Source: Isosphaeraceae bacterium EP7 | Lineage (GTDB): Bacteria > Planctomycetota > Planctomycetia > Isosphaerales > Isosphaeraceae | Direction of reading: 5' to 3' | NCBI GenBank assembly: GCA_038400315.1 | Contig: CP151667.1 | Coordinates: forward strand, 2,739,174-2,803,173 | Length of the DNA: 64,000 nucleotides | Shown here: positions 50,189 to 64,000 of the stretch, one piece after another | How positions within the stretch are numbered: the stretch's first letter is position 1 | Layout of the letters: each line of letters opens with the position of its first letter | Position numbers and translations under genes: made by a program | The notes under the pieces: model-generated | The model's input: the letters and a program-made list of their open reading frames with translations, nothing else | What the model was told of the DNA's origin: nothing | Databases searched by the model: none

Positions 50189-51964
50189 TCAAGCTTCGGC
50201 GGGCCTGGTCCGACGCCGGACGAGCCGGCGCAGGCGAAGGACTCTCAAGTGCTCGCCCAGGTCGGGGAACATCAGGCCGAAGCTCAGGGTGGCGGCGGCT
50301 TGAAGGCCGATCAATGCGGAGACCCTGCGGACCAGGCCGTGGCGACGATGGACGCCCTCGATCGCTCGGTGCGTCTCTGCCTCTGCGGGGGCGACCTGGC
50401 CCGGATCAGATTCGGTTGTCGATTGTTCGATGGTGGATTCGGCGATCAGATCGATCCGCGGCGAGCCGTTGTCCCGGCCCCGGCCCCCCGCCCGGCCCGA
50501 GGCCAGCAGGGGAAATCCGCCGGTCCCTCGAATCGACGAAAGGCCGGCGTCCTGGTCGCAGAGGTCGTCGACATCACCGAGGGCATCCGGCGAGCCTTCG
50601 ACGACCTCGGCATCTCCGCCCGAGTCTTGCCCGAGGGCAACCAGGGCCAGGTCGACGCGGACCGTCTCGCGGGCGTCGATGGCGCGGGTGGGGCTGCCAT
50701 CGCCGAAGGCCCCGCCCATCGGGGCGGCGGCCAGGGCGGGCAGGGGGCCGGTCATCGCCGGCTGCGGTCCGAGCACGATCGCCAGGGTGGCCGAGTCCGT
50801 CAGCTGCTGGGGGACCTGGGATGAGACGCCCGACGTATCGGAGGGGGGCGTGGACGGGGTGATGAGGCCCGACGGGGCGGTGGTGTTCCCGCCCTTCGGA
50901 GCTTCGGGCAGACCGGGAATGGTCGGCGAGACAGGGTCCGGGGGCACGTTGAGCGTGGAGTCGGAGTGCACGTCAACGTGCATGAAATAGTCGGCCAGCA
51001 GGCCCTGGTTCGCCCCTGCGCCGTGGCCAAACTCCCCGCCCGAGTTGCCGGGATCGGCCGGGTAGAAATCGCCGACGCCGCCGGCCATGGTGTCGGCCTC
51101 GGCGTCGTCGGAAAAGGCGGGGCGGATGATACCGATGTTGAGATGGGGGCCGGCCGCCTTGAGGAATTCGCTCAGGTCCATCTCCGTGATCGGCCCATCA
51201 CCGAAGAGCGGGCGACGGCCGAGCTCGTTGCCCTCCGAGTCGAACACGGCGATCACCGATGCGGCGGAGAGTTGCGGCCCAATCCGGCCGAGCTGGATAT
51301 GCACCGACGAGACGCTCGACGCGACCTGGACCTGATAGAAGTCGGTCCGATCCTCGCCGCGCATGCTGCCCAGGACCATGGTGCTGGCGAAGCTGGGCAG
51401 GATCTGGCCGGTCAGCGACGAGTCATTGTCGCCGTCGCGTTCCCAGACGATCGTCGTCCCCTCCGACGCCGCCGCGATCCCCGAGGCAGGCAGGGCGACA
51501 GGCCCGACGAACGCGGGCGGGGTGGGACGACTGGAGGCCAGGGAGGGCTCGAGGTCATCGAACCAGGGACGATCGCGGATCAGGGCCATGACCGCACCGC
51601 CGTCCGGCCAGGGGAGGCCCTCAAGGCTCCCCGGCTGAAGCACCCCGACGTTGCCGTCGTGGAAGGTCAGCAGCATGGCGTAAGGGGGCAGTTCCGACGA
51701 GCCCGAGGAATTCTCGACGCCAGGGTCCGACGCGTCCACCTCCGCCGCGACCGGTTTGGGCGGCGGTTCGGGTACGTACAGGGTGGATTCGGCCGCGTCG
51801 AGCAGCAAGCGACCTTCCAGCGCCTCGATCGCCGGCCGCAGCGAGGGCCGCCGCCTCGGCAGGCTCGATTCGCCCGTCGCGTCCGCACCGACCGTCCTGG
51901 CGTGCTGTCGATCGCGTTGGAATCGCATGTGGGGCCGATCCGGACTTCCTTGGTGCGCATCCAT
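50189..51964 (-). CDS. Large exported-type protein with LEPR-XLL-like N-terminal motif
   Basis: A 591-residue protein of low-complexity composition (Ala, Gly, Pro, Asp, Ser). Residues 41-57 read SLRPAIEALEGRLLLDA, close to the LEPR-XLL motif (LExRxLLSA/DA) that marks many planctomycete surface or exported proteins near their N-terminus. A beta-rich domain follows (VQVASSVSSVHIQLGRIGP, VIAVFDSEGNELGRR at about 210-250), resembling the pre-peptidase-type or dockerin-adjacent domains in such proteins, then a long Pro/Thr/Ser linker. Near the C-terminus is one possible membrane helix (VSALIGLQAAATLSFGLMF) ending in an Arg-rich tail (RLRRLVRRRTR), which suggests anchoring in the inner membrane. 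Function unknown. Start ATG at 51962-51964; divergent from the second BlaI gene. Confidence 0.75.
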   Translation of the reverse strand: MDAHQGSPDRPHMRFQRDRQHARTVGADATGESSLPRRRPSLRPAIEALEGRLLLDAAESTLYVPEPPPKPVAAEVDASDPGVENSSGSSELPPYAMLLTFHDGNVGVLQPGSLEGLPWPDGGAVMALIRDRPWFDDLEPSLASSRPTPPAFVGPVALPASGIAAASEGTTIVWERDGDNDSSLTGQILPSFASTMVLGSMRGEDRTDFYQVQVASSVSSVHIQLGRIGPQLSAASVIAVFDSEGNELGRRPLFGDGPITEMDLSEFLKAAGPHLNIGIIRPAFSDDAEADTMAGGVGDFYPADPGNSGGEFGHGAGANQGLLADYFMHVDVHSDSTLNVPPDPVSPTIPGLPEAPKGGNTTAPSGLITPSTPPSDTSGVSSQVPQQLTDSATLAIVLGPQPAMTGPLPALAAAPMGGAFGDGSPTRAIDARETVRVDLALVALGQDSGGDAEVVEGSPDALGDVDDLCDQDAGLSSIRGTGGFPLLASGRAGGRGRDNGSPRIDLIAESTIEQSTTESDPGQVAPAEAETHRAIEGVHRRHGLVRRVSALIGLQAAATLSFGLMFPDLGEHLRVLRLRRLVRRRTRPAEA

Positions 51965-52287: not shown

Positions 52288-52417
52288 CGGATGAAGTGCC
52301 TGGGAGGGATGATTCCGCTGCTGAAGGGGAAAGCTCCGGGGCCGGTGGTCCGCGTGTCGGGGGGGCTGGTCGCGGGCGACGGCCCACTCCGAATTTCGTG
52401 TTCAAATGGGAGATTCA

Positions 52418-52870
52418 ATGATGGCATTGGCGCGACCTTCGGAGCTGGAGTTGCAGGTCCTGGCGGTGCTCTGGGAGCGGGGGCCGTCGACGGTGCGGGA
52501 AGTGATGGAGGCGATGCCCGACGGCAAGGATCGGGCTTACACGACGATCCTGTCGGTGATGCAGATGCTGGAGAAGAAGGGGTTAGCAGGTCACACGCAG
52601 CAGGGGCAGGCCAACATCTACAGCCCGATCGAGCCGCGGGGGCAGGTCCTGCGTCCCTTGATGGTCGACCTGATGCGCAACGTCTTCGGCGGCAGCCCCG
52701 CGCGTGCGCTGCAATGCCTGCTGGACTCGGCCCCCCCCGGCGAGGATGAGCTGGCGAAGATCCGCGACGTGATCCGCGAAGCCGAGGAAAACGCAGCCCG
52801 CACCCCGGAGGACGGCCGATGCACCTTGGGCTCCCCATCGCCTTCGACTCGCCGGCCTGGCGCCCCCTGA
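52418..52870 (+). CDS. BlaI/MecI/CopY-family transcriptional repressor (second copy)
   Basis: A 150-residue winged-helix repressor of the BlaI family: SELELQVLAVLWERGPSTVREV at the N-terminus, recognition-helix region RAYTTILSVMQMLEKKGL, wing residues HTQQGQANIYSPIEP, then a C-terminal dimerisation part with DLMRNVFGGSPARALQCLL. Starts at the ATG 52418 or the adjacent ATG 52421; GGGAG at 52408-52412 supports either, and an ATG at 52406 overlaps that site. Sequence differs clearly from the copy at 13.5-13.9 kb, so these are separate regulatory systems. The last 52 bases overlap the peptidase gene in another frame. It probably controls this operon through the symmetric elements upstream. Confidence 0.92.
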   Translation: MMALARPSELELQVLAVLWERGPSTVREVMEAMPDGKDRAYTTILSVMQMLEKKGLAGHTQQGQANIYSPIEPRGQVLRPLMVDLMRNVFGGSPARALQCLLDSAPPGEDELAKIRDVIREAEENAARTPEDGRCTLGSPSPSTRRPGAP

Positions 52871-55800
52871 TCGTGGCCTTGCTGCACACGCTCTGGCAGG
52901 GGGGCCTGCTGGCTTTGCTGCTCGTTCTCGCGCTCAGACGCCTGCCCGCGAGCCGCGGCAACGCCCGCTACACGCTGGCGTTGGCCGCCCAGTTCGGCGT
53001 CGTCGTGGCCTGGCTGCTCACCTGGTCCATCCTCTCCGTGGAGCCCGCCCGGAAGGATCCGCGCCCGACGCAAGCCATCAGCATTCCGTCCCGAATCAAC
53101 CTCGGGGCTCGTCCCGCACCATCCGTATCCGCCTCGCTGCCGGACACCTCTCCGGCCATCGTCGAACTCTCTCCCGAGTGGGTCGGCCTGGCCGCCGCGG
53201 GCTGGCTGGCCGGTGTCGCCCTGATGCTGACCAGGGCCGCCGCCGCGACCGCATCGGCGATGCGCCTGGGGAAAGGACCGACGGCGGACGACGCCGCGCT
53301 CCTCGACGCGGTCGACCGGATCCGCCAGGGCTGGGGTATCCGTCGCCCCATCCGCGTGGTCGTCACGAGATCCAGATTCGGCCCCGCCGTGCTCGGCCTG
53401 CTCCGGCCGACCTTGCTGCTGCCACTCTCGCTGATGACGGGCCTGGACCCAGACGCCCTCCAGGCCATCCTGGCCCACGAGCTGGCGCACATCCGCCGGC
53501 ACGATTTCGCCTGGAACCTGGCGCAGATGTGCGTCGAGTCGCTCCTCTTCTTCAACCCGGCCGTCTGGTGGCTGGGCCGCCAGGCCCGGCAAGAGCGAGA
53601 GGCCTGCTGCGACGCGATGGCCGTGACTCTGCTGGGCCGCCCGCTCGATTATTCACGGGCCCTGGCCGCCTGGGCCGAGCGATTGCGAGAGCATCGTTCG
53701 ATCCCGAACGCGGCCCTGGCCTGGACAGGCCGAGACGGTTCATCGTCCCTGCTCGGACGCATCGTCCGCATCCTCAGGCCGTCCGAGGCGCCAAGGCTCC
53801 AGCTCTCCTGGGCCGGCCTGGCCCTGCTGCTCGTGGGCTGCCCGCTGCTGCTGATCGCCTTGAAGCTGGGCTCCCTGGCATTCTCGAAGATCATTCCCAC
53901 GCCAGAACGGATCGAGAAGATCGAGCGGGCCAGGGCCCAATATACCGCGATTCCTCCCGATGAACCCGTGACGCATGGGACCATCCGGGGGACGCTGCGA
54001 AACCCCGACGGGTCGCCCTGGGCGGGACCGCCGATCGAGAGCTGGGCGGCCATCCTGAATCCGGCGAGCAATCTTGGGGGCGGCATGCCGGGCAAGCCCC
54101 AGCCGGCGAATTTCTCGATGGACGTGCTCGGCGGCCGGAATTGGCTGATCTTCTTCCCCGAGGGATACGCCCCCGCCGTAACGGACCCCATCGAGGTGGG
54201 GCCCGATGAAGTCATCGAGAATGTGAATGTCATGTTTCAGCCCGGATTCAAGGCGCGAATCCGCGTGATCGACGAGATGGGTGTGCCCGCCGCCGGCGTG
54301 AAGATCAAGGGGAGCTTGATCGTCGACGAACTTAACGTCAACTTTCCCGAGGGTCGATGGGGCGGCCCCGACGGCCTGACGACCGATGCCGAGGGCTTCG
54401 CCACGGTCGAGCATGCATCCGACCGCGTCTATCGCCTATCTGCCAAAGCTCCGGGATATCGCCGGGCGTCCGAGGTGAGAGTCCGCTTGAAACCGGGCGA
54501 GCCGACCACGTTAACCCTGGTCAAATACCGGACGAAGCCCGCCAGGGGGCTGGTTGTCGCCCCCGACGGAACGCCGGTTGCCGGGGCTCGCCTGGGAGTC
54601 TTCTCCGCATCGACTGTGAATCAAAGCAGTTTCGCCCATGGACGGGACACGATGGCGACCACCGGTGCCGACGGCCGATTCGAACTGCGAGAGCTTGAGG
54701 ATGAGACGAGCTACGGGATGCTGGTGACGACCGATCTGTATGGTCGTGGCCTGCTGACCGACGTGAGGGCTGGCCAGGAGGATGTCAGATTCGTCATCGG
54801 GCCGAGGCGATCGATCCGGGGGGCGATCAGGGGGTCTCTGGACGCGCTCATAAAAAGGCTCGGCAAGCCGGTCGTGACCATCCTCCAGAATGGGACTGAG
54901 GAGCAGCGGCGGCTGACCCGGTACGACGATGGTTTTATCGTGGACAGGATCCTGGTCGAGCCGGTTGGCGATGGTGGACAGTTCGTGGTCGAGGATGTTT
55001 TGCCGGGCGAGGTCGTGATCCATGCCGGCGACCACGTCCTTCGCCTCGAAGTCACAGAGACCGAGACAGCCGCGGTCATCGACTTGACTCGGCCCCTTGG
55101 AAAGATCCCCACTCGCAAGCTGATCATCCGCCTTATCGGAACGGACTCCTCAGATCCCGTCACGGGATCGATCGTCGGCCAGTTCATCGGGCGCAGTGGA
55201 TTGGATCAGCCCGGCCCCGGCCAATTTGACGAGACTCTGGTCGAGGGCGAGGTGAGCGTCGAAGTGCCGATCGATTGCCAGGTCAACTTCGACGCGAGGT
55301 CCGTCAAGGGCTATTGGTTCCCGAGCCAATCCCTCTCAATTAACTCCGGGGATAAACCGTTAAGCCTCAAGGTCCAGGCCTCGCCGGCGGGGGCGATCGT
55401 CGGACAGGTCTTCAACTCCGACGGGACCCCGGCGGATCGGTATACGTACCTGATCTACAAATCGACCGATGCACCGGGTTCGGCAGGTTGGGTCCGCGGA
55501 CAATACCAGTTTCAGGAGGGAGCTGAGTCCCGCTACTTCCTCGGCCCGCTGCCATTCGGCAAGACCTACGTCTTGACCGCGGGCCGGAATGCGAATCAGG
55601 TGGATAGCCCGCCGATCAGGCTCGATGGGCGTGTGGCCACGGTCAAAGTCGATATAAAGCTCGCCGCGACCTCCGACGTGACAGGCCGGATCGTCGCCCC
55701 GGATGGCAAACCCCTCGCCGGAATCAACGTCAGCGTCGACTTCGAACAATCGAAGTCTGGCTCCCTGTTCAGCAGTCCGACGACGACGGACCGCGAGGGC

Positions 55801-56250
55801 CGTTTCCGCTTCTCGGGCTTGAATCCCGGGTTGGGACCTTATGTCGTCGATGTCGTACCCCTACGCGACTACCAGGGCACCCGGGCCACCGTGGTCGCTG
55901 GCGGCCCGCCCGTCGAGATCAAGCTGGCGCGAGGGCGAATCATCGAGGGCCGCGTCCTCGACGCCGCGACGGGCTGGCCCATCCCCGGGGCCGGCCTGAG
56001 CGCGCGGCTCCAGGAGCTCGAAACCGGCGTTGTTTGGTCCTCCAAGGTTGAAGGGAAGACTGACGCCAATGGCCACTTCCGATTCAGCACCCTGCCCGCG
56101 AAGCCGATGATTCTCTCGGTCGAGGAGGGCCACTTTCGGGAGCGGGGCGGGGACCTCAAGATCGACGCGAACTCGGCCGGCCCGATCGAGTTTCGCGTGG
56201 CGTTGCCGGCGGATTCGGCCCTCAGGCCCAGGCGACCGGACGGCCGTTGA
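52819..56250 (+). CDS. M56 (BlaR1-like) metallopeptidase with long carboxypeptidase-regulatory-like tail
   Basis: A 1,143-residue membrane protein. N-terminal M56 part: transmembrane helices (about 17-40 and 53-75, 120-140), zinc motif HELAH at 220-224 and third-ligand ERE in QEREACCDAMA (Glu261), and a fourth helix (about 329-354). From about 390 to the end it is an extracytoplasmic chain of beta domains of the carboxypeptidase regulatory-like/Ig type (GTIRGTLRNPDGSPWAG, GLVVAPDGTPVAGARLGV, GQVFNSDGTPADRYTYL, GRIVAPDGKPLAGINVSV, GRVLDAATGWPIPGAGL), at least five units. There is no penicillin-binding sensor, so the ligand is not a beta-lactam by this reading. The ATG at 52819 lies inside the repressor gene (52-base overlap), so both are coupled. 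Confidence 0.88.
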   Translation: MHLGLPIAFDSPAWRPLIVALLHTLWQGGLLALLLVLALRRLPASRGNARYTLALAAQFGVVVAWLLTWSILSVEPARKDPRPTQAISIPSRINLGARPAPSVSASLPDTSPAIVELSPEWVGLAAAGWLAGVALMLTRAAAATASAMRLGKGPTADDAALLDAVDRIRQGWGIRRPIRVVVTRSRFGPAVLGLLRPTLLLPLSLMTGLDPDALQAILAHELAHIRRHDFAWNLAQMCVESLLFFNPAVWWLGRQARQEREACCDAMAVTLLGRPLDYSRALAAWAERLREHRSIPNAALAWTGRDGSSSLLGRIVRILRPSEAPRLQLSWAGLALLLVGCPLLLIALKLGSLAFSKIIPTPERIEKIERARAQYTAIPPDEPVTHGTIRGTLRNPDGSPWAGPPIESWAAILNPASNLGGGMPGKPQPANFSMDVLGGRNWLIFFPEGYAPAVTDPIEVGPDEVIENVNVMFQPGFKARIRVIDEMGVPAAGVKIKGSLIVDELNVNFPEGRWGGPDGLTTDAEGFATVEHASDRVYRLSAKAPGYRRASEVRVRLKPGEPTTLTLVKYRTKPARGLVVAPDGTPVAGARLGVFSASTVNQSSFAHGRDTMATTGADGRFELRELEDETSYGMLVTTDLYGRGLLTDVRAGQEDVRFVIGPRRSIRGAIRGSLDALIKRLGKPVVTILQNGTEEQRRLTRYDDGFIVDRILVEPVGDGGQFVVEDVLPGEVVIHAGDHVLRLEVTETETAAVIDLTRPLGKIPTRKLIIRLIGTDSSDPVTGSIVGQFIGRSGLDQPGPGQFDETLVEGEVSVEVPIDCQVNFDARSVKGYWFPSQSLSINSGDKPLSLKVQASPAGAIVGQVFNSDGTPADRYTYLIYKSTDAPGSAGWVRGQYQFQEGAESRYFLGPLPFGKTYVLTAGRNANQVDSPPIRLDGRVATVKVDIKLAATSDVTGRIVAPDGKPLAGINVSVDFEQSKSGSLFSSPTTTDREGRFRFSGLNPGLGPYVVDVVPLRDYQGTRATVVAGGPPVEIKLARGRIIEGRVLDAATGWPIPGAGLSARLQELETGVVWSSKVEGKTDANGHFRFSTLPAKPMILSVEEGHFRERGGDLKIDANSAGPIEFRVALPADSALRPRRPDGR

Positions 56251-56412: not shown

Positions 56413-59400
56413 GTGGCACGACGGATCGTCGGGTCGTTTCTCTCATTCGCCGCGGGGGTGCTCGCCACCTCGCTGATGCTGGGTGCCGATGCGCCCGCGC
56501 CCAATCCGGCGCATCGGGCCATCGAGCCGGTGGCCCCGGTGCTTCCCGCCGATGTGGTCGCGGCGATGCAGGAGAAGCGGTATGAGCAGGCTGCGACGTC
56601 GCTCGTGCGGATGGAAGGGGAGGCGAAAGCCGAGGATCAGGCCTATTTTTCCCTAATCCGTGGCATTGCCCAGCGGTTGGGCGGGAAGAAGGCCGAGGCC
56701 CGAGGCACGCTGACCAAGGCGATCGAGGGGGCACCCAAGGGGCCCTGGGCCGCCAAGCTCCGGTTCGAGCTGGCCACGCTGGAGGTGGCCGAGGGGAAGT
56801 TTGCCGCGGCCGAGGCCCTGGCCCGCGAGGAGGCCCAGGGCCTGCTGGCGGGCGACCGCAAGGACAGGCTGGCGGTCGTTTATGAGAACTTCGCCAAAAC
56901 TCTGCTCAAACCCGACGATCCGATCACGCCGGCCGATCCCGAGTCGGCCTACGCCCTGCTAGATCAGGCCCGCCAGCTTGCCAGGGGAGACGCCCTGCGA
57001 GCCAGGCTGCTGCTGGCCAAGGCCCGCGCCAGCCGCCAGGCGAACAACCTGCCGCGAGCCATTGCCGACTTCCAGGCCTATGTCAGCGCCAAGCCCGCGG
57101 GGGCAGATGCCGCAGAGGCACGCTTTGAACTGGCCGATGCGCAGCTGAACGCCGGCCAGCCGCTGCAAGCCCGGCTCGCCTGGGCCGACCTGGCCCGCGA
57201 CCTCGCCGGCAAGACCGAGGCGCCCCTGGTCGAGCTGCGTGCCCGCGCCCTGCTGGGAATCGCCCGGACGCACGGCATCCCGGCTCCCGCCGACGACACC
57301 CAGCTCAACCTGGGCGTCGCCGCCCTCCGCCGCTTCCTGGCCGCGGCGCCGGCGCATCCCAAGGCGGTTCGCGCGGCCTACGACATCGGCGCGTCGTACC
57401 TCTCGCGAGGCAAGACCCAGGAGGCTTACACCGCCTTCCTCGCCTTCCTGAAGGGGGACGGCTACAAGGCCGAGTCCGACGAGGCCAGGCGCGAGCTTGC
57501 CGCCCTGACCCCGACGGCGACGTTCCAGGTGGGCCAGGTCCTCCAGCAGCAGGGGAAGTTCGCCGATGCGATCGAGGCCTGGAAGGGTTACCTGGCCAAA
57601 TTCCCCGACGGCCCGCAGAGCGCCGACGCCCAGCGCCTGATCCTGGACACGCAGCTCGCCATCGCCGACGACCTCGCCAGGCGCGAAGCCTACGACAAGG
57701 CCCGCGCCGCCTGGACCGCCTTCGCGGCCCAGAACCCGTTGGACCCGCGCGTGCCGAGCCTGCTCTTCCGAGTGGGCGAGTCGTTCCTGCCCGAGAAGAA
57801 GCCCGACGCCGCCGTGGCCGCCTGGGAGCCCCTGCTCAGCAGGTTCCCCGACATCGAGCCGGCCGCGCACGCCCAGTTCGAGATTGCTCGCATCCGCGAA
57901 GTTGACAAGGGAGACCCCGCCGCTGCGGTCGACCTGTACCGCAAAATTTCCGTATCCCCCTGGGCGCAACAGGCCCAAGCACGGATCGCGGTGATGGAGT
58001 CGCGGCACCTCCAGGTCATCAGCCCGAAGGCCTATCGATCGGGCGAGGCCGCCTCATTGAAGGTCACCACGCGCAACCTGGAGACGCTGACCTTCACCGC
58101 CTACAAGCTGGACGCGGAGGCCTATTTCCGCAAGAAGCACGGCCTCCAGCGAGACATCGCCGGCCTGGACATCGGACTGGTCGCCCCCGACGCCGAGTGG
58201 ACCGTGCCCGTGGCCGGCTACGGCAAGTTCAAGACCCTGGAACATGATTATCCCCTGCCCAAGCTGACCCTGCCCGGCGTGTACGTGGTGCGGGTGACCG
58301 ACGAGAAGCACCTGCAAGCGACGACCCTGGTGCTGGGCAGCGACCTCGACGCGATCGTGAAGACCTCGCGCGATCAGATCCTGGTCTTCGCGCAGGATAT
58401 GAAGACTGGCAAGGGGCGGGCCGGAGCACGCGTGCTGGTCTCCGACGGCGGCGCGGTGATCCTGGACGCCAAGGCGGGGCCCGATGGCGTGCTGCTCTCG
58501 AGCTGGAAGGAACCGCGAGGGCCGGGGTCGAGCCTGACCTATCTGGTCCTGGACGGGCCCGACGCGGCGGGATCGGGCCTGAGCGTCCCAGGCGAGGTGG
58601 CGCAAGGGCTCTCCGCGCGTGCCTATCTCTACACCGATCGGCCGGCGTATCGGCCCGGGCAGTCGGTCGAGCTTCGCGGCGTGGTACGCGAGGTGAAGGA
58701 TGGGCAATATGAGAATCCGGCGGGCATCGCCTACACCCTGGAAGTGACCGACAGCCGGGGGAGGCTGCTACTCTCCAGGCCGGCGACGCTCTCGGCGTTC
58801 GGCACGTTCCACGAGAGGGTTGCGCTCGACGAGTCGGCCCCGGTGGGCGACTACCGCGTGCGAATTTCGAGGCCCGGACGGGGCGACTTCTCGGGCGGCT
58901 TCCGGGTGGACTCGTACAAGCTGGAGAAGATCACCCTGAGCATCGACCTGCCGAAGACGGTCTACATCCGGGGCGAGTCGGTCAAGGCGAAGGCCGTGGC
59001 GAGCTACCAGTACGGGTCGCCGGCGGCCGGGCGGCCGATCGAGGTGACGCTGCCGGACGGCCGGACGGTGGCAGGCTCGACCGACGCGGCGGGCGCGTTC
59101 GCGGTGGAGTTCGCCACGGACGGATTTGCCGAGGAGCAGGCCCTGAGGATCGTCGCGCGGCTGCCGCAGGATGACGTGGCCGCCGCGGCCGATGTCCGGT
59201 TGGCCGTCCAGGGGTTCCGCCTATCGCTGGAGACGCGCCGGACGGTTTACCTCGATGGCGAGTCGTTCGGACTGGACGTCATCGCGGTCGACGCCCAGGG
59301 CAAGCCCGCGGGTCGTGCCGTCAAGGTCTCGGTGCTCAAGCAGGTGACACGCGGCTCGGTGGTCGCCGAGCGCGAGATCTCGACGGCCAGCGTGACCACC

Positions 59401-62400
59401 GACACGGCCTCCGGGCGTGGGACGGCGCCCCTGAAGATCGACGACATTGACGGAGGCACATACGTGCTGCGGGCCTCGGGCGTGGATCAGTTCGACAACC
59501 CGATCGTGGCCGATCGCGTCGTCACCGTCTCGGGGAAGAAGGACGAGACGAAGCTGCGACTGATCGCCGATCGGACGCAATACAAGGTGGGAGAGAAGGC
59601 GTCGATCAACCTGCACTCGCGGTCCAAGGCCGGCACGGCGCTGCTTGCCTGGGAGGCCGATCGGGTCCTGCGTTACAAGGTCCAGACGATCGCCGAAGGG
59701 GACAACCCGCTGACCTGGGACGTGGACGGGGCCGAGTTCCCCAACTTCACGCTGACCGCCGCAAGGATGGTGGACACCCGGTTCGACGAGGCGCGGCTCG
59801 ACCTGAAGGTGGAGCGCGAGCTGGTCGTGCGGATCGAGCCGAAGCGGCCTTCGGCCAGGCCCGGCGAGGAAATCGAGGTCGAGGTGACGACCGTCGACCA
59901 GCTGGGCAAGCCGGTCGCCGCGGAGCTTTCCTTGGCGCTGGTCGACCGCGCCCTGTTGCGGCGGTTCCCCGACACGTCGTCGCCAATTAGCGAACATTTC
60001 TATAACCAGTCGCGCACCAATGCGTTTACCACCGCGGCCACCAATACATTCCGCGACGCCCCCCAGACCGTGCCCGTCCCCGAGGCGGTCGTCGAGGAGA
60101 TGGAATCGGCCGCGGCGCTCGCCGCCAACGAGGCCTCCAAGGCCGCCATCATCAACCGGGCCCAGTTGCAGGTGGCAGGCGACATGCCTGCCCCGGCGAT
60201 GGCTCCGATGATGGGCATGGGGATGGCGGGCAAAGGCGAAATGGGCGGTGGAATGGGCGGAATGATGGGCAGGATGGGAAAGAAATCGAAGGAGGGGTTG
60301 GTCTACGACAACTCGTCGTCATCGGTTGACAACATGTCGGCGTCGATTCCTGCCAACGGACTCCCGGTACTCGGGAGAAGAGCGGTGGAGATGGAAACCG
60401 CACTCGGGGAGAACGCCCCGGCGGAAGCAAGACAATTGTTCGCGCGGGATCAGAAGCTTGGGGTGGAGCCGCGACAGCAGTTCGTCGAGACCGCCTACTG
60501 GAATCCGGCCGTCGTCACCGATGCGAAGGGGAAGGCGACGCTCACGATCAAGGCGCCCGCGGCGCTGTCCGAATACCGCTTCACGGCGAAGGGGGTGACC
60601 GGGGCCGACACGCTCGTCGGCCAGACGACGGCCTCATTGGTGGTGCGCAAGGATGTGTTCGTCGACTTGAAAGTCCCCGCCACGCTCACGCAGGGGGACT
60701 CCCCCCGGTTCGTCGCGCAACTGCATCACAACGGCGTGAAGGGAAAGGCCTCTCTGATCCTCAAGGCCTATGCGGGCGACCGCGAGACGTCGTATCCACG
60801 CGAGATCGAGCTGACCGGCGACGGCGTCGAGGAGATCCTGTTCGAGGGATTCGAGGTCCCCGAGTCCGACCAGGTACGGCTGACCGCTTCGGTCAAGGTC
60901 GGGGACCAGGCCGATGAACTGACGGTCGAGGTCCCGGTCCGGCCGTGGGGGGTGCAGGCGATCGCGTCGGCGTCGGGCACGTCGTCGAACGACTCGACGG
61001 CCATCGTGGGCCTGCCCGAGGGGCGTGCGTACGAGAACGCCGAGATGCTGGTCGTGGTCTCGCCGACGGTGCAACGCATGCTCATCGAGCTTGCCATGCA
61101 GCGCGAATTCATGCCGATGCCGAGATTCGTCTCCGACCGGATCATGCCCCCGCCGTCGAACACGCTGGCCGACCGGGCGTCGGATCTGATCGGGGCCGCG
61201 GCGGTCCTGAAATACCTGAATGCGACGAAGGCGCAGGACGCCCCCGAGGCGGGCCGGTTGGTGGGCCGGATTCGCGGCCTGGTCGCCGAACTCATCACCG
61301 CGCAGAATGACGACGGCGGCTGGCCGTGGGTGGCCGGGCCCATCATCGAAGGCAAGGTTCGGCCCGGCGACCGGATGACCTCCGCCCATGTCACCCTGGC
61401 ACTCGCCGCCGCCAGCAAGCTGGGCCTGCTGAGCGACCCGGCGGCGTCCGAGCGTGCGACGACGTACCTGGCCCAGGAGATCGGCAAGGTCGAACCGGCC
61501 GACCACGAGGCCCGGGCGGCGATCTTGCACGCCCTCAGCGCGCACGGCAAGGCGACGTTCGAGGCCGCCAACAGCCTGAACCGCCTGCGGCAAGGCCTGC
61601 CCGACTCGGCGCTCGCGTATCTGGCCCTGACCCTGGTGAATCTCGACCGCGTGGCGCTGGCCGGCGAGATTCTGGACGTGCTCGGCACGCGGGCGAAGCA
61701 GGAGCAGGGGGCCCCCGGCGACAAGCCCCGGATCTTCTGGCCAGGCACCGTCGGCCGGGGCCACGCGGGCCCGACGGAGAGCACCGCCCTGGCCGCGCTC
61801 GCCTATGCCGCGGCCCGACCCGGCGCCGCACAACTGGAGGGGGCGGTCCGCTGGCTGGAGGCGCACCGGACGGGCTTCGGATGGCGTCCGGAGAAGGCCG
61901 AAGGGTTCGCGCTCGCGGCTCTCGCCGCCTATCACGGACGGGCCGCCGACTCCGAAGACCGGTATCGACTGGTCATCACCGTCAATGACGTCGAGGTCCA
62001 CCGCGCCGACGTCACCGGCGTCGCGACGGGAAAGGCCCTGCTCGTGCCGGCGAAGGCCATCAAGGCCGCGGGGAGCAACCGGGTCAGGTTCGACATCGAG
62101 GGACGAGGCACGTATGGATATTCGGTGACCTTGACCGGATTCACCCGCGACTTCGGCCCCGACCAGAATTCCCGCCAGCCCTTCTCCGTCGCCGAGCGTG
62201 TCTACACCCCCGCGGACCCCGAGTTCAACGGCCGGCCGATTGCCGCCGGCTTCGGGGTCGCGCTCAATGCGCAGGGATTCCGCAACACGGTGAGCCAGGT
62301 CGCCTCGGGGGGTCGCGCCAGGGTCCACATCGAGGCCAGGCGCAACCAGAACGGGGGAGTCGAGGCCTGGCGCCGCGACTTCCTGATCCTGGAAGACACG

Positions 62401-64000
62401 CTGCCCGCGGGCACCACCCTCATCGATGGATCGGTGAAGTCGTCGGCGCAGTCCCACACCTATGCCGATGGTTTGATCACGTTCTACTTCGGGCCCGACG
62501 ACTATCCGGGCACCATCGAATACGACATTGCCGGCTACCTGCCCGGCAAGTATCGGACCCTGCCCACGAAGATCAGGAGCGCCTACGAGCCGGGTCGCGT
62601 GCACCTGGGCAAGCCGGGCGAGATCACGGTGATCGCCCCCGGAGAGCCGACGACCGACCCGTACAGGCCGACTCCGGACGAGTTGTATGCCCGGGGCAAG
62701 GCCCTGTTCGACGAGGGGAAGATCGCCGAGTCGGCGGCCCCTCTGGAGGCCCTCTTCGCCGGGTACACGCTGCGGGATGACGTGGCCAGTGACGCCGCGA
62801 GGATGCTGCTCTCGGCCTCGGTGAAGGCGTACGACGCCCGCAAGGTCGTCCAGTATTTCGAGGTCCTCAAGGAGAAGGCCCCCGACCTGGTCATCCCGTT
62901 CGACGAGATCCTCGTCGTGGGGCGAGCCTATCGCGACATCAATGAACATGAGCGGGCTTACCTCGTCTGGCGGGCGATCGCCGAGGCGAGCTACCTGGAG
63001 GACGCACGCGTCGGAGAGGCGATCCGCCAGCGTGGTCGGACGCTCGAAGGCCTGGCGATGCTGATGGACCTCTGGCGCGAGTACCCCGACACCGCGTCGA
63101 TCCAGGGTGACTTCTTCGGCCTGTCGCAAGTGCTCGCCGACGCCGCCGGGCGTGCCCTGACCGAGCCGGCGCTACGCAAGGAGCTGGCGCAGGCCGGCGT
63201 GACCCGTTCGGAGCTGCTGCTCCAGGCGATCCGGATCACCCAGGTCTTCCTCGCGCTCTCGCCCGAGAACCCGATGGCTGACGAGGCGAGCCTGGGACTG
63301 GTCGGCGCCTTCCTCGACCTGGAAGATTTCGAGTCGGTGGTGAAGCTGACCGAGCGGTTCGCCAAGCTCTACCCCAAGAGCACCTTCCTGGACAGCTTCC
63401 AGTACAGCGAGGCCCTCGGCCGGTTCCAGCTCGGCCAGTATGACCGGGCCATCGCCGTGGCCGAGTCGATCAACGCGGCGACCTACAAGGATGCCGCGGG
63501 GGTCGACCAGCCGAGCCCCAACAAGTGGCAGGCGGTCTATATCCTGGGGCAGATTTACGACGCGAGGCGCCAGCCGGCCAGGGCGATCGAGTTCTACACG
63601 CAGGTCGCCGACAAGTTCAGCGACGCCGCCGAGGCGATCAACGGGTTCAAGCGCAAAGACCTGAAACTTCCCGAGGTCGTCGTGATCCGGCCGGCCGACG
63701 ACAAGGCCCCCGGCAAGCCGGGCGTCACGCTCGACTATCGCAACGTCGCCGAGGTCGAGCTGAAGGTCTATCCGGTCGACCTGATGCGGCTCTACCTGAC
63801 CAGGCGAAATCTGGACGGCATCGCCGGGGTCGACCTGGCGGGGATCAAGCCGCTGCACGAGGTGACCGTCAAGCTGGGCGACGGCGACGATTACGCCGAC
63901 AAATCACGGCGGATCGAGCTGCCGTTGACGAAAGAAGGTGCCTATCTGGTGATGGCACGCGGCGGCGAGCTGCACACCTCGGGCATCGTCCTGATCAGCC
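56413..64000 (+). CDS. Giant alpha-2-macroglobulin-like protein, 3'-truncated by the window edge
   Basis: An unbroken frame of 2,529 codons from GTG 56413 (GAGGAG ten bases upstream) to the window end, with no stop. A signal peptide (SFLSFAAGVLATSLMLGADA) is followed by TPR-like helical repeats (about 45-530). Macroglobulin (MG) beta domains come next (from about 557: TFTAYKLDAEAYFRKKHGL; TDRPAYRPGQSVELRGVV; RTVYLDGESFGLDV). A Met/Gly-rich segment sits at about 1258-1290. The A2M core (ETAYWNPAVVTDAKGKATL at about 1357) and a helical thioester-domain-like region (about 1547-1870) follow. The expected CxEQ thioester is absent, so covalent trapping is unlikely. A second TPR block (about 2090-2420) and a second first-MG-like domain (from about 2447, VELKVYPVDLMRLYL) close the visible part. 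Bacterial macroglobulins are periplasmic and often lipid-anchored; no lipobox here. Confidence 0.9.
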   Translation, partial: MARRIVGSFLSFAAGVLATSLMLGADAPAPNPAHRAIEPVAPVLPADVVAAMQEKRYEQAATSLVRMEGEAKAEDQAYFSLIRGIAQRLGGKKAEARGTLTKAIEGAPKGPWAAKLRFELATLEVAEGKFAAAEALAREEAQGLLAGDRKDRLAVVYENFAKTLLKPDDPITPADPESAYALLDQARQLARGDALRARLLLAKARASRQANNLPRAIADFQAYVSAKPAGADAAEARFELADAQLNAGQPLQARLAWADLARDLAGKTEAPLVELRARALLGIARTHGIPAPADDTQLNLGVAALRRFLAAAPAHPKAVRAAYDIGASYLSRGKTQEAYTAFLAFLKGDGYKAESDEARRELAALTPTATFQVGQVLQQQGKFADAIEAWKGYLAKFPDGPQSADAQRLILDTQLAIADDLARREAYDKARAAWTAFAAQNPLDPRVPSLLFRVGESFLPEKKPDAAVAAWEPLLSRFPDIEPAAHAQFEIARIREVDKGDPAAAVDLYRKISVSPWAQQAQARIAVMESRHLQVISPKAYRSGEAASLKVTTRNLETLTFTAYKLDAEAYFRKKHGLQRDIAGLDIGLVAPDAEWTVPVAGYGKFKTLEHDYPLPKLTLPGVYVVRVTDEKHLQATTLVLGSDLDAIVKTSRDQILVFAQDMKTGKGRAGARVLVSDGGAVILDAKAGPDGVLLSSWKEPRGPGSSLTYLVLDGPDAAGSGLSVPGEVAQGLSARAYLYTDRPAYRPGQSVELRGVVREVKDGQYENPAGIAYTLEVTDSRGRLLLSRPATLSAFGTFHERVALDESAPVGDYRVRISRPGRGDFSGGFRVDSYKLEKITLSIDLPKTVYIRGESVKAKAVASYQYGSPAAGRPIEVTLPDGRTVAGSTDAAGAFAVEFATDGFAEEQALRIVARLPQDDVAAAADVRLAVQGFRLSLETRRTVYLDGESFGLDVIAVDAQGKPAGRAVKVSVLKQVTRGSVVAEREISTASVTTDTASGRGTAPLKIDDIDGGTYVLRASGVDQFDNPIVADRVVTVSGKKDETKLRLIADRTQYKVGEKASINLHSRSKAGTALLAWEADRVLRYKVQTIAEGDNPLTWDVDGAEFPNFTLTAARMVDTRFDEARLDLKVERELVVRIEPKRPSARPGEEIEVEVTTVDQLGKPVAAELSLALVDRALLRRFPDTSSPISEHFYNQSRTNAFTTAATNTFRDAPQTVPVPEAVVEEMESAAALAANEASKAAIINRAQLQVAGDMPAPAMAPMMGMGMAGKGEMGGGMGGMMGRMGKKSKEGLVYDNSSSSVDNMSASIPANGLPVLGRRAVEMETALGENAPAEARQLFARDQKLGVEPRQQFVETAYWNPAVVTDAKGKATLTIKAPAALSEYRFTAKGVTGADTLVGQTTASLVVRKDVFVDLKVPATLTQGDSPRFVAQLHHNGVKGKASLILKAYAGDRETSYPREIELTGDGVEEILFEGFEVPESDQVRLTASVKVGDQADELTVEVPVRPWGVQAIASASGTSSNDSTAIVGLPEGRAYENAEMLVVVSPTVQRMLIELAMQREFMPMPRFVSDRIMPPPSNTLADRASDLIGAAAVLKYLNATKAQDAPEAGRLVGRIRGLVAELITAQNDDGGWPWVAGPIIEGKVRPGDRMTSAHVTLALAAASKLGLLSDPAASERATTYLAQEIGKVEPADHEARAAILHALSAHGKATFEAANSLNRLRQGLPDSALAYLALTLVNLDRVALAGEILDVLGTRAKQEQGAPGDKPRIFWPGTVGRGHAGPTESTALAALAYAAARPGAAQLEGAVRWLEAHRTGFGWRPEKAEGFALAALAAYHGRAADSEDRYRLVITVNDVEVHRADVTGVATGKALLVPAKAIKAAGSNRVRFDIEGRGTYGYSVTLTGFTRDFGPDQNSRQPFSVAERVYTPADPEFNGRPIAAGFGVALNAQGFRNTVSQVASGGRARVHIEARRNQNGGVEAWRRDFLILEDTLPAGTTLIDGSVKSSAQSHTYADGLITFYFGPDDYPGTIEYDIAGYLPGKYRTLPTKIRSAYEPGRVHLGKPGEITVIAPGEPTTDPYRPTPDELYARGKALFDEGKIAESAAPLEALFAGYTLRDDVASDAARMLLSASVKAYDARKVVQYFEVLKEKAPDLVIPFDEILVVGRAYRDINEHERAYLVWRAIAEASYLEDARVGEAIRQRGRTLEGLAMLMDLWREYPDTASIQGDFFGLSQVLADAAGRALTEPALRKELAQAGVTRSELLLQAIRITQVFLALSPENPMADEASLGLVGAFLDLEDFESVVKLTERFAKLYPKSTFLDSFQYSEALGRFQLGQYDRAIAVAESINAATYKDAAGVDQPSPNKWQAVYILGQIYDARRQPARAIEFYTQVADKFSDAAEAINGFKRKDLKLPEVVVIRPADDKAPGKPGVTLDYRNVAEVELKVYPVDLMRLYLTRRNLDGIAGVDLAGIKPLHEVTVKLGDGDDYADKSRRIELPLTKEGAYLVMARGGELHTSGIVLIS
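60184..60285 (+). repeat. Met/Gly-rich low-complexity segment in the macroglobulin-like protein
   Basis: Codes for about 34 residues with 13 Met and 10 Gly, for example MAPMMGMGMAGKGEMGGGMG followed by GMMGRMGKK. It sits between the MG domains and the A2M core, near where a bait region would be. Confidence 0.85.

What the first reader, a model, noticed from the sequence alone, without database searches (positions are those of the whole stretch)
56413..64000. Giant macroglobulin-like protein without a thioester and with repeated TPR-MG architecture
The A2M core is present but the helical domain lacks the CxEQ motif needed for covalent trapping. A TPR block followed by a first-MG-like domain occurs at the N-terminus (MG start about residue 557) and again near the visible end (about residue 2447). 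The two MG starts align: YKLDAEAYFRKKHGL against YPVDLMRLYLTRRNL, then IAGLD against IAGVD. This suggests an internal duplication, or a fusion of two ancestral genes. TPRs fused to macroglobulins would give a large periplasmic scaffold rather than a protease trap.
Basis: partly seen in the sequence, partly recalled or inferred. Interest (0 to 1): 0.62.

Follow-up and report, generated by a model that had tools for sequence, protein, structure and literature searches.

The report
Two-ended giant macroglobulin without thioester
A bacterium of the phylum Planctomycetota makes a very large secreted relative of the immune protein alpha-2-macroglobulin that has lost its chemical glue and carries a copy of its own front end at its back end; the same layout is conserved in many Planctomycetota and Verrucomicrobiota, and it may form a cage that holds proteases or other cargo.

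Summary
The gene (window 56413 to 64437, 437 bases past the window) encodes a cysteine-free 2674-residue secreted alpha-2-macroglobulin (A2M). Its front module, TPR + NIE + MG1, is repeated behind the receptor-binding domain, where the protein ends; there is no second A2M core. The duplication is real (profile-profile E 3e-20 over 301 columns), arose once, and is conserved in giant A2Ms of Planctomycetota and Verrucomicrobiota.

Lack of a thioester does not follow from the architecture: a sister clade with the same two-ended layout keeps PYGCVEQ. The focal clade lacks the thioester and both switch motifs of the receptor-binding domain, but has a conserved C-terminal tail that the thioester-bearing giants lack. 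The bait region is kept, long and hypervariable, and the predicted core matches native A2M, C3 and C5.

I favour a thioester-independent, probably oligomeric, bait-bearing trap. The main rival is a CAGE-like hollow container: the published domain order of the eukaryotic CAGE complex matches this protein closely, which I could not test directly.

The parts
56413..64000 (+). giant A2M gene; continues to window-equivalent 64437 (2674 aa, GTG start)
   Evidence: complete ORF L002:2587-10611; AGGAG just before the GTG
56413..56490 (+). signal peptide (MARRIVGSFLSFAAGVLATSLMLGADA), no lipobox cysteine
   Evidence: sequence; homologous N-termini also hydrophobic, (judged by eye, no signal-peptide program available)
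56548..58002 (+). N-terminal TPR superhelix, residues ~46-530
   Evidence: (all-helical to model residue ~500)
57982..58578 (+). NIE + MG1 (bMG3), residues ~524-722
   Evidence: 4zjh (E. coli A2M NIE-MG1) Z 15.1, rmsd 3.0 A, 189 aligned; Pfam bMG3
58618..58908 (+). MG2 domain (Pfam MG2), residues 736-832
   Evidence: E 4.5e-26
59554..59958 (+). A2M_BRD Pfam region, residues 1048-1182
   Evidence: E 4.2e-11
60112..60462 (+). bait region, residues ~1234-1350: Gly/Met/Ala-rich, hypervariable in length and sequence
60490..60726 (+). Pfam A2M signature (MG7 side of the core), residues 1360-1438
60973..62187 (+). CUB domain, split around the thioester domain (approximate bounds)
   Evidence: alignment to C5/TEP1; bounds inferred
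61066..61947 (+). thioester-domain fold (TED, alpha/alpha toroid), residues 1552-1845
   Evidence: C5 TE domain 9y6c Z 21.1, rmsd 3.4 A over 266; (YfhM TED and squalene cyclases)
61120..61188 (+). position of the lost thioester loop, residues ~1570-1592 (no C, no CxEQ)
62188..62637 (+). receptor-binding / C-terminal MG domain (CTMG), residues ~1926-2075, without RDDR and xMY motifs
62665..63672 (+). second TPR block, residues 2085-2420
63676..64000 (+). second NIE domain, residues ~2422-2530; the second MG1 copy (~2545-2620) and the conserved C-terminal helix + peptide (to residue 2674) lie at window-equivalents 64003-64437

Best explanation
SHOWN BY COMPUTATION: this is a secreted, cysteine-free, thioester-less member of a family of giant A2Ms of Planctomycetota and Verrucomicrobiota in which the TPR-NIE-MG1 front module was duplicated once, long ago, onto the C-terminus. 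One large clade (the focal one) has no thioester, its receptor-binding domain lacks the RDDR and xMY switch motifs, and it has a conserved C-terminal helix + peptide; a sister group with the same two-ended layout keeps the thioester. The bait region and the native-like MG7-CUB-TED-receptor-binding-domain fold are retained. INFERRED: it works as a thioester-independent protease trap outside the cytoplasm. A protease cuts the bait, the TED and MG arms collapse around it, and the protease is held by enclosure and non-covalent contact, as reported for MagD. The two TPR-NIE-MG1 ends probably wall off the cavity or join subunits into a closed oligomer, which would make the covalent bond dispensable; the tail may be a latch or docking peptide.
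For: Duplication. One event: all 30 N-modules form one clade (97*) and all 30 C-modules lie on the other side, thioester-bearing giants included. Same layout with an intact thioester in 11 phylum-sample giants. Thioester-less main clade is one side of the core tree under the mixture model (support 91) and is not rejected by the AU test (p 0.74, held tree 14.7 log units better). Switch motifs R[DE][DENTQ]R / xMYx[PE]: main clade 1 (an unrelated stretch, so effectively 0) and 0 of 37; thioester giants 8 and 9 of 10. Tail: 33-72 residues after the C-module in 109 of 110 main-clade sequences, Gly at -8 in 95 of 110; 1-9 residues (one 23) in thioester giants. Bait kept: median span 166 aa against 140 in shorter, mostly thioester-bearing A2Ms, identity 0.11-0.32 against about 0.5 around it. 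Native-like fold: rmsd 3.1-4.4 A to native animal A2M, C3, C5 and TEP1 structures, 10.8-14.3 A to activated forms. MagD precedent: PMC5764988. The family profile matches E. coli Type II YfaS (1.5e-76) better than Type I YfhM (1e-27), and the C-terminal part of YfaS lacks RDDR and xMY too.
Against: No biochemical data. Hypervariability of the bait could be that of any disordered linker. Monomeric A2ML1 needs its covalent bond to inhibit (PMC9156758), so a thioester-less protein must be oligomeric or non-inhibitory, and oligomerisation was not testable here. No mag-type partner (DUF1175) or PBP1c C-terminal domain in the genome, so the MagD analogy lacks its operon. Loss of the switch motifs could mean loss of the whole activation switch.
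Confidence: 0.45

Rival explanations
1. A CAGE-like hollow container or chaperone, no longer a protease trap: the A2M fold is reused as the wall of a homo-oligomeric cage outside the cytoplasm, and the bait is only a flexible loop.
For: The CAGE preprint (PMC12485934) describes ~2200-aa proteins forming ~1 MDa D2 tetrameric cages, with homologues in Planctomycetota and Verrucomicrobiota; most bacterial ones carry signal peptides. Its printed domain order (helical 1-443; beta domains 3-8 from 444 to 1195, two with A2M as top structural hit; a split beta domain 10 around helical domain 11; beta 12; helical 13-14; beta 15) parallels TPR, NIE, MGs, CUB(TED)CUB, receptor-binding domain, TPR, NIE-MG1. 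CAGE3 lacks domains 14-15, as shorter A2Ms lack the C-module. Thioester and switch motifs are gone.
Against: No sequence or fold match to a CAGE chain was seen (such a chain may not be in the copy). CAGE1 had no Pfam domain, whereas this protein has clear ones. The bait is retained.
Confidence: 0.35
2. A C5-like assembly or signalling protein: bait cleavage switches conformation and exposes a binding face, without trapping anything.
For: C5 is a thioester-less member of the same fold and matches the model at Z 28.8, rmsd 3.3 A; switch motifs and thioester both gone; large TPR blocks suggest partners.
Against: No anaphylatoxin domain among the Pfam hits, no conserved neighbouring partner gene; direct evidence is nil.
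Confidence: 0.1
3. A plain structural scaffold with no bait function.
For: Long TPR blocks at both ends; no thioester.
Against: The same two-ended layout occurs with an intact thioester; bait retained in length; predicted core is native-like.
Confidence: 0.08
4. A decaying pseudogene-like relic.
For: Loss of the thioester motif only.
Against: Open over 2674 codons, about 43-63% identical within the family, with the C-module among the best conserved parts.
Confidence: 0.02

Closest known systems
Type II bacterial A2M (Pseudomonas aeruginosa MagD, E. coli YfaS)
   Same: No CxEQ, bait kept, periplasmic without lipobox (MagD, PMC5764988); the C-terminal part of YfaS also lacks the RDDR and xMY motifs
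   Different: No TPR blocks, no C-terminal TPR-NIE-MG1 copy, ~1500 aa, six-gene mag operon; phylogenetic placement of YfaS relative to this family is unresolved
Type I bacterial A2M (E. coli YfhM/ECAM, Salmonella SaA2M)
   Same: Domain order NIE-MG1...bait...CUB-TED-CTMG; detectable sequence and fold similarity
   Different: Thioester, inner-membrane anchor, RDDR/EXMY switch, paired with PBP1c; none of these here
CAGE complex protein (Tetrahymena CAGE1-3, Dictyostelium AbpF and prokaryotic homologues; PMC12485934)
   Same: Very similar published domain order including a terminal helical + beta module; bacterial homologues reported in Planctomycetota and Verrucomicrobiota, most with signal peptides; no thioester mentioned
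   Different: CAGE1 had no Pfam hits, is ~450 aa shorter and seems to have one or two fewer MG domains; relation not tested
Complement C5 and other thioester-less animal relatives
   Same: Same MG7-CUB-TED-MG8 fold without thioester
   Different: No TPR, no NIE, no terminal duplication; C5 is a complement component

Membership tests
A2M / complement superfamily | MG domains + bait region + CUB-TED + receptor-binding domain in order | tested here: met
   Pfam; fold Z about 25-31 for MG7-CUB-TED-RBD; NIE-MG1 Z 15.1; bait
Type I bacterial A2M | CxEQ thioester | tested here: not met
   0 cysteines in 2674 aa
Type I bacterial A2M | partner PBP1c (BiPBP_C domain) | tested here: not met
   no PF06832 match in the genome, control rings in E. 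coli
Type II bacterial A2M (MagD/YfaS) | no CxEQ but bait kept | tested here: met
Type II bacterial A2M (MagD/YfaS) | mag/yfa operon partners (DUF1175 YfaT) | tested here: not met
   no PF06672 in the genome; control rings in E. coli
Type II bacterial A2M (MagD/YfaS) | groups with YfaS in a tree | tested here: inconclusive
   YfaS long branch, unresolved
Type II bacterial A2M (MagD/YfaS) | non-covalent trapping after bait cleavage | not testable with these tools
   needs purified protein
CAGE complex family | sequence or fold match to a CAGE protein | tested here: inconclusive
   no CAGE chain among hits, but unknown whether one is in the library
CAGE complex family | homotetrameric hollow cage | not testable with these tools
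   needs EM or mass photometry
CAGE complex family | domain order as printed (helical - six beta - split beta around helical - beta - helical - beta) | tested here: inconclusive
   order parallels with one or two MG domains more here; compared from the paper's text only

The most novel reading that the evidence does not exclude
The bacterial two-ended, thioester-less giant A2Ms and the eukaryotic CAGE complexes are one family: CAGE would then be an A2M whose terminal helical + beta module is a duplicated TPR-NIE-MG1, and the duplicated ends plus the conserved tail would close a megadalton cage that made the thioester dispensable.
Probability: 0.35. Interest if true: 0.82.

Novelty: new variant of a known kind. 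Interest (0 to 1): 0.58.

Why it matters
Bacterial A2Ms are usually described as two kinds, with or without thioester. Here is a family of Planctomycetota and Verrucomicrobiota with a third architecture in which both states occur on the same two-ended frame, so the effect of losing the covalent bond can be studied on a common background. Absence of the thioester and of both switch motifs goes with a conserved C-terminal peptide at clade level, a testable lead to how a trap works without covalent capture. If the CAGE link holds, it would give the unexplained cage of ciliates and slime moulds an evolutionary identity and a function to test.

Tried and rejected
Second A2M core downstream: absent. 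Shifted thioester: excluded by zero cysteines. Recent or strain-specific duplication: rejected, conserved across Planctomycetota and Verrucomicrobiota. Conserved operon partner: no recurrent neighbour beyond close relatives; the BlaI, M56, ASPIC and efflux-adaptor neighbours of this genome are not generally conserved next to the gene. Anti-phage defence models: no PADLOC hit. Direct sequence match of the C-terminal NIE-MG1 copy to a solved structure: none, so its identity rests on the profile match to the N-terminal copy and on Pfam bMG3. CAGE chain in PDB searches: not seen, which proves nothing. Split of the gene in L117: next to runs of unknown bases, so taken as an assembly fault. Placing YfaS and YfhM in the tree: unresolved long branches.

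Full report
CHECK OF THE OBSERVATION. The window lies in a 7.2 Mb genome whose nearest named relatives are Isosphaeraceae, Planctomycetota. The ORF runs off the window; in the genome it ends 437 bases further, giving a 2674-residue protein from a GTG at window 56413 with AGGAG in front. Pfam finds MG2, A2M, A2M_BRD, bMG3 and TPRs; phmmer finds Salmonella and E. coli A2M. There is no CxEQ and no cysteine at all.

DOMAINS. Two AlphaFold2 models with family alignments cover residues 30-1229 (pLDDT 82) and 1475-2674 (pLDDT 84). Residues 1475-2075 superpose on MG7-CUB-TED-MG8 of TEP1, A2ML1, A2M, C3 and C5 with Z about 25-31 and rmsd 3.1-4.4 A for native states, but 10.8-14.3 A for activated ones; E. 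coli and Salmonella A2M in the native state score Z about 22, rmsd 5.0-5.4 A. So the core is intact and predicted in the native arrangement; the program may have learned this. Residues 524-722 superpose on the NIE-MG1 crystal structure of E. coli A2M (Z 15.1, 3.0 A, 189 residues).

DUPLICATION. The last domain is recognised as bMG3 in 16 of 17 family members. The C-module profile is found in 85 of 294 sampled genomes of the phylum, 64 of 210 genera, and in Verrucomicrobiota, nearly always in ORFs of about 2500-3000 codons where the contig is long enough. A tree of the modules separates all N from all C copies, so one duplication precedes the spread of the family. The C-module is conserved at least as well as the core.

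THIOESTER HISTORY. All 23 members in the first set lack CxEQ, while 15 of 16 shorter A2Ms sampled from the same family and class have it. Among phylum-wide giants with the same two-ended architecture, 11 keep GCxEQ. The main thioester-less clade forms one side of the core tree under a mixture model (support 91); holding it together improves the likelihood of the simpler tree (p-AU 0.74). That this state is a loss is inferred from the thioester being general in the superfamily; the trees are unrooted. A second, separate loss is seen in L127/L128 (GGGLETT). Trees are quick searches without bootstrap.

CORRELATED CHANGES. In E. coli and Salmonella A2M the RDDR and EXMY motifs of the C-terminal MG domain hold the TED in the native state and bind the cleaved bait (PMC4498604). 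They are present in most thioester-bearing giants (8 and 9 of 10) and absent from the main clade (0 of 37, one regex hit being an unrelated stretch). The main clade instead ends in a 33-72 residue extension with a short helix and a C-terminal peptide with Gly at -8 (95 of 110), such as KGVQIQQAK here and RGVQIQQAR in a Verrucomicrobiota member; thioester-bearing giants stop right after MG1. The 110 are not independent. Its function is unknown.

BAIT. The segment between BRD and MG7 is disordered-looking, Gly/Met/Ala-rich and hypervariable, with identity 0.11-0.32 against about 0.5 around it and spans of 128-341 residues; it has not shrunk relative to the shorter A2Ms. This fits a working bait but does not prove it.

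MECHANISM. MagD of P. aeruginosa lacks the thioester, is cut in its bait and retains the protease non-covalently (PMC5764988). The family profile scores E. coli Type II YfaS higher than Type I YfhM, and the C-terminal part of YfaS also lacks the two switch motifs (yfaS is a pseudogene in this strain and its two frames were read apart), so their absence need not exclude trapping. Monomeric A2ML1 needs its covalent bond (PMC9156758), so enclosure by an oligomer is the natural way round; the duplicated ends are candidates for it. This is inference.

CAGE. A preprint (PMC12485934) reports a megadalton homotetrameric cage in Tetrahymena and Dictyostelium, with most homologues in bacteria, notably Planctomycetota and Verrucomicrobiota, and signal peptides on most bacterial ones. 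Its printed domain list reads like this protein: helices, a run of beta domains with A2M hits, a beta domain split around a helical one (as CUB is split around TED), a beta domain, helices, a terminal beta domain. I compared text only; no CAGE chain appeared in PDB searches, and it may not be there.

VERDICT. The duplication is real; the two-gene fusion is wrong; 'scaffold rather than trap' is unproven. It is a new variant of a known kind, with an open link to CAGE.

Noticed in passing
window-equivalent 64321-64437 (P0002 residues 2637-2674); L219, L104, L192 and others at their C-termini: Conserved C-terminal helix + peptide (Gly at -8, often GVQ/GVK, Ala/Val/Phe at -2) in the main thioester-less clade only.
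   Followed up: partly
L127, L128 (G177, G114): Separate thioester loss inside the thioester-bearing clade (PYGCxEQ position reads GGGLETT), without the tail.
   Followed up: partly
window 56413-64000: The 2674-residue protein has no cysteine at all; close homologues have only 1-7.
   Followed up: no
window 52406-56250: Upstream BlaI-like regulator and an M56-like peptidase fused to carboxypeptidase-regulatory-like repeats (named by eye); not conserved next to the gene in relatives.
   Followed up: partly
L002:10630-13637 (just beyond the window): Downstream FG-GAP/ASPIC-UnbV protein and an RND efflux adaptor, same strand; not generally conserved as neighbours.
   Followed up: partly
window 50189-51964: Minus-strand 591-aa protein with an N-terminal LEGRLLLDA stretch, resembling a surface or export signal common in planctomycete proteins (from memory).
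   Followed up: no
L058 (G030): A short (~2060 aa) A2M that has lost its thioester (HKTTDTT) although its relatives keep it.
   Followed up: no
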